Below, one piece after another: positions 29,901 through 34,148 of a stretch of 64,000 bases of DNA. Numbering within the stretch: position 1 is the first letter of the stretch; every line of letters starts with the position of its first letter. Origin of the DNA: Halichondria panicea. Its lineage: Eukaryota > Porifera > Demospongiae > Suberitida > Halichondriidae. The position numbers were made by a program, and so were the translations under genes. The stretch covers positions 4,407,047 to 4,471,046 of the forward strand of contig NC_087388.1 in assembly GCF_963675165.1 (NCBI RefSeq), read 5' to 3'. A model generated the notes under the pieces. It was given only the letters and a program-made list of their open reading frames with translations. It was not told the DNA's origin and made no database searches.

Positions 29901-30289
29901 ATCAAAAAGTAATCTTAACATCCATTAATTAACAGTTTTCTCAATTGAGGATAGTTGCTTCAATAGAGCTTGTGTTTCGTTGTTTTCCAGTGCAAGGGCA
30001 CTCCGTCCATTCTTGACAGCAGATGAAGATACTTTCCCTGGGGATGAGTGTATGCACGTGAGATGTTGCACAGTAATCCAGGCATTACATGTACATGCAC
30101 ATGAATCTTTTGAACATCAAGTTAACTTCCTAACCATGCAAACCATACACATGTCTTGAAATTTCAAGCCTGATACATCATAACTATAAACGCAAATTCC
30201 CAAAGTGCTTGAAATGTCAATGACTATTGTACGTATAATTATCCTGTCTGCAAAGAACTAGCTGTGCAGTTGTGGCTTGAAATTTCAAG
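26984..30289. repeat. Dispersed 14-bp palindrome CTTGAAATTTCAAG
   Basis: Exact at 26984-26997, 30155-30168 and 30276-30289; one-base or one-gap variants at 29657, 29817 and 30208. They lie on both sides of the retrotransposon, so the host repeat field predates its insertion. No function is inferred. Confidence 0.6.
27013..29630 (+). mobile_element. 5'-truncated non-LTR retrotransposon (endonuclease C-terminus and reverse transcriptase)
   Basis: Starts inside an APE-type endonuclease (CIGVFYRPPSS, ILLGDFNVN, SDHLGISLQV near 27033-27380). A run of 12 A at 27777-27788 marks a frame change, after which the reverse transcriptase continues: [32 protein letters not shown] and the catalytic LLYADDLLLY. 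A second frame change near 29380 is needed to reach the usual C-terminus (SFFPKAISVWNELP). It ends in a 16-A tail at 29615-29630. The overall look is CR1/Jockey-like, not resolved further. Truncated 5' end, two frameshifts and a poly-A tail say it is a dead copy. Minus-strand frames across it are shadows. Confidence 0.9.
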
Positions 30290-33200
30290 GATGTACCTTG
30301 CCTCGAACCCAGGCCGCAGGGAGGCCTGGTTCGAGGCAAGGATGTACCGTATATGCTTTATCAGGAGCCGCGGCTACTAAATGTTTCGAAGAGGAGGCTA
30401 CAATTAGAGAGAGGCCACTGTTCAAGAGCGGCCTTTATTAGCTCCAGCTAATTCAACTTGTTATCAAAAGTTATTTTCACCTGCATAAACTTAAACTCTG
30501 CCATGAGAAAGTCTTTGTGAAGCACTAAGAAGCAGTTACCTGTACCTAGTAGCTACGTACATCTAGCTAGCTGCTAGTATTGACCTGTACCTAGTAGCTA
30601 CATACATCTAGCTAGCTGGTAGTTGTTTTGGCTGCCACGTGCAGAAATGCTAGAGTCAAAGTTCACTGAGGCTACTATTTGAGAGCGGCTACTAAAATTA
30701 GTTTCATTTTGCTAGCAAGGGAGGCTACTATTTGAGTGCGGGCCTTTATACAAGAGCGGCCTCTGATCGAGCATAATGCGGTAATTATTGTACAGAGATT
30801 CATTACACGATCTTTACCATACTAAGGATGACCTTTTTTGCAAATTCTCTTTAAAGGATCTTTACCATAATGCAGGATGACCTTTTTGCAAATTATCCTT
30901 AAAGGATCTTTACCAGATGTTAACAGTACTTACTATTCCCACTCGAAGACCCATTGCCCAGGTGATGTTAGTAGTTTAATGAGTTCCTGATAAAGCATTG
31001 GTTTTGGTCTTGCCCTGCCTTGAGGTGTATTGATAGGCTCATCCATAGCTACTGTTAGAAGGTTGCCCACAAACTCTGTTTTCTTAGCAAAGAAAGGGTA
31101 CTCATTGCAAGAAGACCATTGCCCAATCACCATTGGTGTTATAGTGTTTTGAAGATCACACCCTGTGTACGTATCTGTATATGTAAACAAAATGTAGTGG
31201 CTTTTTGTGTTTAAATGTAGTATAGGTGTACTCATACAATATAAATTTATTGTAAGTACATACTATAATTATATCACCTTTGCTTGCAGCGCTGGTGTCT
31301 TGCATGTATGCTGTTAGTACATACTATAATTATATCACCTTTGCTTGCAGCGCTGGTGTCTTGCATGTATGCTGTTAGTACATACTATAATTATATCACC
31401 TTTGCTTGCAGCGCTGGTGTCTTGCATGTATGCTGTTTGTGCTTTGCAATCTTGCTGCTGCAACTCCAGGTCTTGTGGTGGGGAAATTACAACTACTGCA
31501 AAGGACGATAGGCCCAGGGCAATGTTGGTAGATCTCACTAGGCGTACAATTGTCGTTACTTCTGTGCACGACCAGTCCTGTATGAGATTTACACAGGTGA
31601 ACGTGGTACATCATTGTATAATCATGTATGTATACGTACGTAACCTACATTGTGTAGATGCTTGCATACCATTGATTCTGTAAAGCTATAATAATACGTA
31701 CATACCCCAACGAATGTTGCCTTTTATATGTTATTCTAATGATGTGCTGTAATATAAAATTAGCAAACTAATTACTTACCTCTGGTGTGTCGAGGATGGT
31801 GAGGTGCAGACCACTGCACTGCAGACTCCCAAAGCCATCCAGTAACTCTCTCGTACTGACCGTGATCACGTTCGCATTTATAATAACCGCGAAACTGTTG
31901 TCATAACTGACATGTAGGCCGTCTGTGACGCTAGTTGGTTGTTCTATGGATTTGTTTAGTATAGCTTGCTTTGCTTGGGTACAGAAGGAGCAAAACGTTT
32001 GGGGAACATTGCTCTTTTTGAAATAGAGGGAAGTAAACTGTGCCAAGTTTTCGTCAGATGTGTGCGTAGGGTAAAGCTGCAGTGCTTCCTCCCAAGAGCC
32101 GATGTCGAGTTGCGTTATGAAGGCCAATTTAATCTCTTTCATTTTTTTTATGACTTTGCACTTTTGGCTTAGGTCTTTAAGCGACAACTCTCCACATTGA
32201 ACTTCCTGTAAGAGGTTTCGTCTTTCTTCCTCTTCCAACCCTCGAAGCGGCTTAAAATTAACGCCTTTGCAGCTAATTTTTGAGTACTTGTCTCTGCCCT
32301 CGTGACAGCTTTTGGTTTTTGAGGTCGCACAATTCATATTGAGCAAAAATCTCTAAAACACAATCATACTCAACGTCGGGTAACGAAGCCAGGAAGAAGA
32401 CCATTGAGTATTCGAGCTGTTGCACCTGTATACAAACGTTATGAACTAGTTAACCCGAGATACGTACGTACATACATTATGCAAATGCATAATTATTATG
32501 TATGACAAAGGTATGACAATGTACCGTATTTACTTGATTAAACGCCCAGGGTAAAAGTTCTGTCTTTGTCAATAAACTCACATCTTAAATAATCTCCTAT
32601 GTATGGGGTGTAGCACTGTGGGTGGAGCTAGATACTATTTACGATGGCAGCGCAGAGAGAGAGATATCAACACAGAGGGAAAACAATACTCCTATTATGA
32701 CTTTTAAGCTAAGAAATAGATTTAAGCTGAGACAGCAGTCAAGAAGAGCACAATAACTGCTGCTGCGCAAGAGTTTGGAGTAGACATGACAATAAACGCC
32801 CGTTTCGAATAAACGCCCTCTCTACAGACGTTGCTAGGAGATAAACGCCCGGGCGTTTAATCAAGTAAATACAGTACGTGTGTAAGCACGAGTTTGTCAC
32901 TCACCTGCAGGCTGAGTAGACTAGCACATGCCTTTCGCCACTCTGTCTTGCTACTCCTCCCAGCATACCTGCTTCTGCATATCATTACCTACATAACGAA
33001 AATAGTTTCCTTTTACTAACTACTAGTTTAGGTGTTGCTATGTATCCGTACATCATAAATGCGCGCTTACCTGATCTTGTGTCGTCATTTTGTGAGTAAG
33101 ATCGGTTGCCCTGTTGTGTTTCGAAGCTATCATTAAGGCCACGTCGTCATCGACACCTGTATAAACTGCTACTAGCCTTGTCTGAAGGCTTTCTCTTGGG

Positions 33201-34148
33201 TTTTCGACAGCCAGCTCCTGAAGTGCAATTCTGCTATGATTGCCCCCAATCGTTTCATACTTGTATAGTGCTGGATGTTTTTTATCGAATTCTTGACCGT
33301 CATCGAGGCATGGTATACCAATAATGGGTGACACCGTAGAAATTTGGTTCGCCATTATTTCGTCTTTCAGAGTGTTGATAAAAACTCTATCTGGGGGTCT
33401 CAAACATCTGCTCATTCTAGGCTCCATTAGACAGGAAATGGGAATCTCATAGCACCCTATAACATTGACCGATTGCAATTTGCATAAACTTAATTACTTA
33501 TTGAGCTCACCAGTATAGTACTGTATGATGTCATTGTCACTGTCTTCATCAATTTTTTTCTTCTTTGATGGTCCAAGACCTGTGCTTGGTGAAGTATGCT
33601 TACCAAGCTGCACTAGTGGCTCATCCTGGTACTTGCCTATAACGATACATGGAAAAAAAGCTCTCAGTTTAGTGTAATTAATTTATAGTTATTTACGTAA
33701 GCTGTCAAACTCCGAAAATTATAAAACCTGCATGCATGCATGCACTAGGTGATTCATGAAAACCATGTCACGCGCTTACCAGTGTTGCTGTCAATTCTTG
33801 GAAGAACTAGCCGAGTCCATTCTTCATGGAACTGCGTGGCGCTCTTTGCATTCTTAAACTGTCTTGAAAATGGTGATTTCTCCCATGTAAAGTCTACCAG
33901 TGACTTCTCTCTTGCTGCTTCTTGGTCCAGTAACTTGATCTGCATACATTAGTCTAATACTTGCATGTGCCATGCATGCAGTGTATCTGTATCTACCGAT
34001 AAACATTTATATAGAAAAAGCTTACCCTGATCTTGTCGTTGCTAGCTTTAACTGCAAACACAGGACCATTAGTTTCCTGTGTCGCATTCTTCACGATATG
34101 AATGTAGCTGTCTTTGACATCAAAATACCACTCCTTGTTTGCTGGCAT
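29925..34148 (-). CDS. ParB-like domain fused to amino-methyltransferase-like domain
   Basis: Exons chain in phase: 34148-34026 (ATG), 33939-33780, 33636-33511, 33456-33071, 32988-32905, 32425-32370, 32308-31780, 31577-31400, 31174-30934, and probably 30037-29925. About 660 aa. Exon 4 has PPDRVFINTLKDEI, SPIIGIPCL and YKYETIGGNHSRIALQEL followed by SKHNRATDL, the layout of the ParB/sulfiredoxin fold. Exon 7 ends VITVSTRELLDGFGSLQCSG then LHLTILDTPE, the layout of methyltransferase motif IV (DPPY); exon 8 begins DWSCTEVTTIVRLVRS; exon 9 ends RPKPMLYQELIKLLTSPGQW; exon 10 has KNGRSALALENNETQALLKQ, as in motif I of beta-class, circularly permuted DNA methylases. Motif IV is DTPE and the FxGxG loop is not seen, so catalysis is doubtful. 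Odd points: a 61-nt intron (32369-32309) with a weak acceptor is needed, and exons 9 and 10 do not share phase. Function unknown; the fold calls are mine. Confidence 0.6.
30296..30341. repeat. 46-bp hairpin between direct repeats
   Basis: CCTTGCCTCGAACCCAGGCC pairs with GGCCTGGTTCGAGGCAAGG around a 7-base loop, with one mismatch. AAGGATGTAC stands on both sides. Similar GCCTCGA...CAGGC hairpins occur at 14639-14685 and 55616-55671. Probably a tiny inserted or rolling hairpin, not a terminator. Confidence 0.6.
31258..31437. repeat. Three 61-bp tandem repeats spanning an exon-intron border
   Basis: Three near-perfect copies of a unit that, read on the minus strand, contains the last 33 bp of the methyltransferase-like exon (CATACATGCAAGACACCAGC ...) and its GTGATA donor plus an AACAG acceptor. 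A 33-bp exon in each copy would be phase-consistent, but the intervening 28 bp is too short for an ordinary intron. Confidence 0.8.
32523..32876. mobile_element. AAACGCCC-type element, full length
   Basis: Inverted termini ACCGTATTTACTTGATTAAA CGCCC and GGGCGTTTAATCAAGTAAAT AC bound 354 bp in intron 5 of the ParB-like gene. Interior has AGAGAGATATCAACACAGAG and CTGCTGCGCAAGAGTTTGGA. It serves as the template for recognising the broken copies at 2803 and 7471. Confidence 0.75.

What the first reader, a model, noticed from the sequence alone, without database searches (positions are those of the whole stretch)
29925..34148. Animal gene joining a ParB-like domain to a permuted DNA-methylase-like domain
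Seen: an ATG-started, phase-consistent exon chain with YKYETIGGNHSRIALQEL in the ParB position (usual GERRxxA) and, in the right order for a beta-class N4/N6 methylase, VITVSTRELLDGF / LHLTILDTPE (motif IV region), DWSCTEVTTIVRLV, RPKPMLYQELIKLL, then KNGRSALALENNE (motif I region). Known: phage and bacterial proteins often fuse ParB-like and amino-methyltransferase domains. Inference: this is a domesticated prokaryote-type or transposon-borne DNA-modification protein in an animal, with DPPY changed to DTPE and no visible FxGxG, so perhaps a DNA-binding pseudoenzyme.
Basis: partly seen in the sequence, partly recalled or inferred. Interest (0 to 1): 0.88.

Follow-up and report, generated by a model that had tools for sequence, protein, structure and literature searches.

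The report
Transposon-borne ParB–methylase-like gene, decayed copy
In an animal genome, a family of jumping DNA elements carries a gene that joins two bacterial-type DNA-handling domains (a ParB-like one and a DNA-methylase-like one lacking the usual catalytic motif); the window holds a broken copy of that gene.

Summary
The gene is real, on the minus strand (29925-34148, 9 exons), but broken: two 8-bp deletions relative to a close copy on another contig shift its frame. That copy reads open for 681 codons after one early stop. Both domain calls hold as distant homology. The C-terminus of five relatives matches DNA methylases (profile vs PDB: RsrI E=2.3e-5; reversed control 0 hits). The ParB-like exon matches phage ParB families (E=3e-4; none in reversed sequences), but not Pfam ParBc. 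Catalytic DPPY is absent in 3 of 3 full gene models. The window copy keeps the left terminus of such an element (26521-26543) but no DUF7869 was found. So it is a decayed transposon passenger, not a domesticated host gene. Likeliest role (inferred): accessory DNA-binding pseudo-methylase for transposition or escape from silencing. I found no such element in the listings.

The parts
26521..26543 (+). left terminus of the element (TIR-type sequence beginning AACACCTTC); the same 23 bases stand at both ends of the C1 element
   Evidence: 0 chance matches in 100 shuffles; 5 places in the genome at up to 3 mismatches, backwards-read control 0
27025..29627 (.). insert absent from the C1 copy, holding a reverse-transcriptase ORF (27758-29539, RVT_1)
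34026..34148 (-). exon 1, start codon, N-terminal domain
33780..33939 (-). exon 2
33511..33636 (-). exon 3, Lys-rich linker
33071..33456 (-). exon 4, ParB-like domain (YKYETIGGNHSRIALQEL)
   Evidence: PHROG ParB-like E=3e-4; no ParB family in reversed sequences
32905..32988 (-). exon 5
31780..32425 (-). exon 6, middle region and methylase-like motif IV region (LTILDTPE); 8-bp deletion relative to the C1 copy shifts the frame
31400..31577 (-). exon 7, methylase-like region; its donor end lies in a 61-bp tandem repeat, so the border is uncertain
30934..31162 (-). exon 8, motif X-like (RPKPMLYQELIKLL) and start of motif I; 8-bp deletion in motif I relative to the C1 copy
29925..30037 (-). exon 9, helix after motif I and motif II region (KNGRSALALENNE), stop codon; not reached in frame in this copy
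34560..36335 (.). 169-bp tandem repeats upstream of the gene, inside the stretch shared with the C1 element; possibly subterminal repeats

Best explanation
The window holds a decayed copy, without DUF7869, of an animal DNA transposon whose cargo gene encodes an N-terminal domain, a ParB-like domain and a permuted beta-class amino-methylase-like domain. In related elements the gene is intact and lies head-to-head with a DUF7869 gene that is probably the transposase. Shown: the distant domain similarities, the recurrent gene pairing, TIRs with 4-bp target duplications in one group, recent multi-copy spread, and constraint on the protein. Inferred: the protein binds DNA (ParB-like clamp or switch plus the base-recognising methylase fold) without DPPY-type methyl transfer, and helps its element transpose or escape silencing.
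For: MTase part: Pfam N6_N4_Mtase at the right profile position (E=0.014 whole protein; 3 of 5 C-termini, best 0.0055); 3-member full-length profile against PDB gives 3 hits at E up to 10, all modification methylases (RsrI 0.0043 twice, 2zie 2.4); 5-member C-terminal profile RsrI 2.3e-5, 2zie 0.0056; reversed control 0 hits; NCBIfam DNA methyltransferase 0.0032; PHROG methyltransferase 0.0027 and DNA methyltransferase 0.071. ParB part: 3 of the 4 PHROG families matched by 6 members are ParB-like, best 3e-4; no ParB family in the reversed sequences. Transposon: 9.8-kb copies at two places on C8, 98.8% alike, full or partial copies on C1, C3, C11 and C12; shared TIR in 23 places; exact 4-bp TSD in 3 of 4 end pairs tested in that group; divergent DUF7869 within 4 kb for 7 of 14 ParB matches, covering three diverged groups (L011, L012, L014/L015). 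Intact relatives: L012 730 aa ATG to stop, L011 694 codons. Constraint: pN/pS 0.10 between window and C1 copies. Window element: left terminus shared with both ends of the C1 element.
Against: No match to Pfam ParBc, NCBIfam gave 0 families for the ParB exon, and no ParB in PDB by profile; the similarities are distant and no fold model supports them. No paper in the library names DUF7869, so 'transposase' is inference. The window copy's right end was not found, and no DUF7869 was found in the window or in the 20 kb around the C1 copy. The C1 element shows no TSD. Constraint is not seen in one comparison of L011-group copies (C8 vs C3: 2 synonymous, 4 non-synonymous, P=0.41; C8 vs C8: 7 and 3, P=0.0019). 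DNA binding and any role in transposition are untested.
Confidence: 0.6

Rival explanations
1. The intact relatives are active DNA amino-methyltransferases (or act on another substrate) that modify the element's own DNA, as anti-silencing cargo.
For: The motif X/I region is the part that profiles find; one lineage (L013) still reads DATTGSG before the splice site and NCAVAAL after it, close to the standard glycine-rich loop. Other transposons carry DNA-modification genes: DNMTs in retrotransposons (PMC5890265, abstract read) and TET/JBP in fungal DNA transposons (PMC12730594, passages read).
Against: No DPPY/SPPY-type motif IV in any of the 3 full gene models: DTPE (C1), TSHS (L012), DIPV (L011). 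In the rotifer enzyme N4CMT, changing SPPY to APPA abolishes activity (PMC8885841, passages read).
Confidence: 0.17
2. Host-domesticated gene: the window copy serves the animal and has lost its transposase.
For: pN/pS 0.10 between window and C1 copies; no DUF7869 found beside either copy.
Against: The window copy has two frameshifts and a stop at codon 344, the C1 copy a stop at codon 6; the same TIR-like terminus bounds the window copy on the left and the C1 copy on both sides; constraint of this kind also arises while an element is mobile.
Confidence: 0.06
3. A transposon gene of some other fold; the ParB and methylase resemblances are convergent or chance.
For: Pfam scores of single sequences are below the curated cut-off; ParBc is not matched; DUF6551 and DUF7213 score weakly in the same region; the ParB call rests on PHROGs alone; the motif IV stretch matches no profile.
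Against: The methylase part is found in Pfam, PHROGs, NCBIfam and PDB profile searches and not in the reversed profile; the ParB part is found in three PHROG families, while the reversed sequences gave only one HTH family at E=0.23; the two lie in an order known for ParB-methylase fusions (recalled).
Confidence: 0.1

Closest known systems
Fungal DNA transposons carrying TET/JBP dioxygenase genes (KDZ, EnSpm, Plavaka and others)
   Same: DNA transposon with a transposase gene plus a DNA-modification-type cargo gene (PMC12730594, passages read)
   Different: Cargo here is ParB-like plus beta-class methylase-like, the partner is DUF7869, the host is an animal; Pfam reported only DUF7869 for the partner ORFs
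DNMT-carrying retrotransposons of dinoflagellates and charophytes
   Same: Mobile element with a DNA-methylase gene (PMC5890265, abstract read)
   Different: Those are retrotransposons with active C5 cytosine methylases; this is a DNA transposon with an amino-methylase-like domain lacking motif IV
Bdelloid rotifer N4CMT
   Same: N6_N4_MTase domain of bacterial origin in an animal (PMC8885841, passages read)
   Different: N4CMT is a host gene with chromodomain and SPPY catalytic motif; here ParB-like domain, no SPPY/DPPY, carried by transposons
Prokaryotic and phage ParB plus amino-methylase fusion proteins
   Same: Domain combination and order (fusion known from recall, not looked up)
   Different: Animal, intron-rich, extra N-terminal domain, sequence too far for a direct hit in the searches made
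RsrI DNA methylase (1eg2, 1nw8)
   Same: Motif X/I stretch, E=2.3e-5 to the family profile
   Different: Active enzyme with a standard motif IV (recalled); the alignment covers 40 positions only

Membership tests
Beta-class amino-methyltransferase (N6_N4_Mtase) | Sequence similarity around motifs X and I in C-terminal position | tested here: met
   reversed control; single-sequence Pfam matches are below the curated cut-off
Beta-class amino-methyltransferase (N6_N4_Mtase) | Permuted order, motif IV region before X/I | tested here: inconclusive
   A stretch with DTPE / DIPV precedes motif I and looks like the motif IV region by eye, but no profile matched it
Beta-class amino-methyltransferase (N6_N4_Mtase) | Catalytic motif IV [DNS]PP[YF] (recalled) | tested here: not met
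   Absent in 3 of 3 full gene models
Beta-class amino-methyltransferase (N6_N4_Mtase) | Methyl transfer to DNA | not testable with these tools
   needs enzyme assay
ParB/Srx superfamily | Profile similarity to ParB-like domains | tested here: met
   PHROG ParB-like families, best E=3e-4 for the window exon; none in reversed sequences; but Pfam ParBc, NCBIfam and PDB not matched
ParB/Srx superfamily | GERRxRA-type nucleotide-binding motif (recalled) | tested here: not met
   GGxH at that place in 6 of 6 members
TIR DNA transposon (relatives of the window gene, L011 group) | Terminal inverted repeats and target-site duplication | tested here: met
   TIR AACACATTCACTGTTAAAAGTTCC; exact 4-bp TSD in 3 of 4 end pairs, the fourth shifted by one base
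TIR DNA transposon (window copy itself) | Both termini and a TSD | tested here: inconclusive
   Left terminus found; right terminus not found in the window; C1 copy has both termini but no TSD
KDZ transposons | KDZ transposase domain | tested here: inconclusive
   Pfam reported only DUF7869 for the L011-group partner ORFs (E up to 1, up to 10); that Pfam holds a KDZ model is recalled, and no direct comparison was made

The most novel reading that the evidence does not exclude
An animal DNA-transposon lineage (DUF7869 type, 4-bp TSD in the one group where it could be read) has carried a prokaryote-type ParB plus amino-methylase fusion as a conserved second gene long enough for it to gain spliceosomal introns and diverge to under 30% identity. 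The protein, catalytically altered, works as a DNA-binding clamp or base-reading factor (or as a modifier with a non-standard active site) that the element needs to move or to hide from silencing.
Probability: 0.4. Interest if true: 0.82.

Novelty: new variant of a known kind. Interest (0 to 1): 0.66.

Why it matters
Transposons that carry DNA-modification genes bear on the arms race between mobile elements and silencing. Cases I know of are C5 methylases in retrotransposons and TET/JBP in fungal DNA transposons. A ParB-methylase type gene of prokaryotic kind, kept under constraint in animal DNA transposons beside an uncharacterised DUF7869 gene, would add a class of cargo, suggest a function for DUF7869 (transposase), and give a testable case of a methylase fold turned into a DNA-binding accessory.

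Tried and rejected
Led nowhere: protein search with the C1-copy product (none at E up to 0.001) and with the 3-member profile (none at E up to 1); viral contigs and prokaryote genomes gave pattern matches but no confirmed relative; tblastn against phages matched 48 records, and the 10 listed have E 5-7, dismissed as noise; single-sequence AlphaFold of the ParB exon, pLDDT 34.9; PDB by ParB profile gave only a designed repeat protein at E=1.3; Rfam 0 and tRNA 0 in the window.

Considered and rejected: an intact window gene (frameshifts); the 238-bp repeat at 49936-50173 as part of the same element (a MITE-like insert shared with the L011 element); L037 (C1:8.149M) as support for the pairing (a decayed relative of the window gene, 73-86% at DNA level in pieces, with a different DUF7869 type on the same strand); C12:5.02M as a case without ParB by design (internal deletion removing that exon). 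Two further matches to the window's terminus, C8:5.50M and C14:5.69M, carry no related gene in the 20 kb held of each (tblastn at E up to 0.01).

Limits: A3 contains two sequences (L013, L014) joined across splice sites that were not checked, and they were picked with a profile made from the first three; the 3-member profile A2 gave the same best hits more weakly. In one search, 11 of 20 listed hits are methyltransferases of various kinds, but three designed TIM barrels (0.13-0.19) rank above all of them except RsrI (two entries) and 2zie. Counts of DUF7869 and ParB matches are lower bounds and are per exon piece (tool note). The paper searches were seen as listings; most listed papers were not opened.
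Full report
What was checked. The window is G000:C12:4407047-4471046 of a 131-Mb, 39-contig assembly that contains Wnt genes (10 exon-wise matches), so the host is a metazoan. The finding's exon chain exists on the minus strand: nine exons between 34148 and 29925, with GT/AG borders and all the peptides quoted.

The window copy is broken. Spliced as described, it stops at codon 344. A second copy on contig C1 (L009), 93-98% identical in the three main stretches, explains why: the window copy lacks 8 bp in exon 6 and 8 bp in exon 8, the latter inside the methylase-like motif I. 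The C1 copy has one in-frame stop at codon 6 and is then open for 681 codons to the natural stop. Coding differences between the two are 11 synonymous and 4 non-synonymous (pN/pS 0.10, P = 2.8e-5), and exons differ less than introns (0.73% vs 1.46%). The protein was therefore probably under constraint until recently; both copies now carry lesions. In the L011 group the same test gave 7 synonymous and 3 non-synonymous between the two C8 copies (P = 0.0019) but 2 and 4 between C8 and C3 (P = 0.41).

Methylase-like part. The C1 copy ends ...RPKPMLYQELIKLLTSPGQWVFDPLSGNRKVSSSAVKNGRSALALENNETQ.... Pfam's only match for the whole product at E up to 10 is N6_N4_Mtase, E=0.014, at residues 622-666 against profile positions 170-214 of 221, below Pfam's cut-off. 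With relatives added, the 3-member profile A2 found 3 PDB sequences at E up to 10, all modification methylases (RsrI 0.0043 twice, 2zie 2.4; that these are beta-class is recalled). The 5-member C-terminal profile A3 found RsrI at 2.3e-5 and 2zie at 0.0056; 11 of the 20 listed are methyltransferases of various kinds, the other 9 (designed TIM barrels, CysO and others) have E 0.13 or weaker, and the three TIM barrels rank directly after 2zie. The reversed profile found none. N6_N4_Mtase is matched by 3 of 5 C-termini. NCBIfam gives a DNA methyltransferase subfamily at 0.0032 (L011) and 0.012 (C1), with an unrelated transporter at 0.059. PHROGs matched 6 families over the 3 full products: one ParB-like, two methyltransferases (0.0027, 0.071) and three of unknown function. 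The motif I region varies: VFDPLSGN (C1), VLDITSGN (L012), VIDATSESGN (L011), IIDATTGSG (L013), VLDATESGK (L014). Catalytic motif IV of the DPPY kind is absent in 3 of 3 full models (DTPE, TSHS, DIPV).

ParB-like part. Six members (one partial) align over 134 columns with invariant YxYE..GG.H and A-S-x-H-N. The window's exon matches PHROG ParB-like family 6392 at 3e-4; of 4 PHROG families matched by the 6 members, 3 are ParB-like. The reversed sequences match only one HTH family at 0.23. Against: no Pfam ParBc match, no NCBIfam family, no ParB in PDB, and the usual GERRxRA (recalled) is GGxH here. DUF6551 matched 3 of 6 members at best 0.0034.

Transposon context. The ParB-like exon has 14 matches in the genome, the window's own included. 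For 7 of 14 a DUF7869 match lies within 4 kb on the opposite strand, head-to-head (coordinates): C1:9.67M, C8:5.63M, C3:1.90M, C8:3.31M, C1:8.26M, C14:4.83M, C1:8.42M. For one more (C7:4.005M) it lies 10.7 kb away. The other 6 are the window, C1:15.65M, C6, C4, C1:8.43M and C1:8.149M; the last has a different-type DUF7869 on the same strand. With 57 DUF7869 matches in 131 Mb, a random place has at most about 0.35% chance of one within 4 kb (my arithmetic). The seven cover at least three diverged groups, but four of them are near-identical copies of one element. In that L011 group the element is 9.8 kb, 98.8% identical between two places on C8, with TIR AACACATTCACTGTTAAAAGTTCC (23 places at up to 3 mismatches, backwards-read control 0) and an exact 4-bp target duplication in 3 of 4 end pairs tested, the fourth shifted by one base. 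The partner ORF matches DUF7869 at 1.3e-30, continued at 1.2e-12 in the next piece. Intact cargo genes exist: L012 reads 730 aa from ATG to stop, L011 694 codons from the first exon modelled to the stop (the start exon of L011 was not modelled). L012 and L011 are 28% and 27% identical to the C1 product.

The window's own element. The terminus AACACCTTCTATTTTGAACTCGG is at 26521-26543 and at both ends, inverted, of an 8.66-kb partly palindromic element on C1 that holds the sister gene. It begins like the L011-group TIR (AACAC-TTC). No DUF7869 relative was found in the window or in the 20 kb around the C1 copy, and the window's right end was not found. An insert with a reverse-transcriptase ORF interrupts the window element.

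How it most likely works. Shown: a mobile family with a recurrent gene pair, and a ParB-like plus methylase-like protein under constraint. Inferred from the families: ParB-like domains bind nucleotides and DNA, and beta-class methylase folds bind AdoMet and read bases. With motif IV gone, a DNA-binding accessory protein is the likeliest reading, used at element ends or against silencing. DUF7869 as transposase is also inference; no paper in the library names it.

Comparison with print. Searches for ParB with methyltransferase, transposon, eukaryote and DNA modification (13 papers), DUF7869, ParB-like with sponge and transposition (3 papers) and DNA transposon with ParB, methylase and animal genome, at least 3 of 4 (16 papers, 10 listed) showed no such element in their listings (titles and starts of abstracts; papers not opened). 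Closest in kind are TET/JBP genes in fungal DNA transposons (PMC12730594, passages read), DNMTs in retrotransposons (PMC5890265, abstract) and bdelloid N4CMT, whose SPPY is needed for activity (PMC8885841, passages). Repbase and animal proteomes were not available.

Against the calls I mended identity ranges, the coordinates of the C3 copy, the C13 count, the KDZ row (now inconclusive) and the wording on controls, and added the results against my reading.

Noticed in passing
G000:C3:1891844-1901667 (L022/L023): A copy of the 9.8-kb L011-group element is circularly permuted: its two TIRs stand tail to head with one base between the AACAC...GTGTT ends, and both outer ends share 14 bases, as if an excised circle had been re-inserted.
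   Followed up: partly
G000:C1:15651714-15660374 (L009+L026): The sister element is partly palindromic: the arms outside the gene are 100% identical inverted copies (318 and 1402 bp), one arm carrying an insert.
   Followed up: partly
window 27758-29539: LINE-like reverse-transcriptase ORF (593 aa, RVT_1 7.3e-37) nested in the element.
   Followed up: partly
window 49936-50173: 238-bp MITE-like repeat with inverted ends, 99% identical to an insert between coding pieces of the L011-group element.
   Followed up: no
window 506-3631 and 37034-41743: Duplicated stretches, 79-83% identical; further repeats at 1-509, 10134-10706 and 43816-44371, and an 86% palindrome at 39311-40537.
   Followed up: no
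G000:C13:5504396-5982395: Seven near-matches to the L011-group TIR, all on one strand of C13 within 0.5 Mb and all ending AGTTCG.
   Followed up: no
window 31251-31437: 61-bp tandem repeat, 3.1 copies, that duplicates the end of exon 7 with its splice donor; the donor-end sequence occurs three times here and once in the C1 gene.
   Followed up: no
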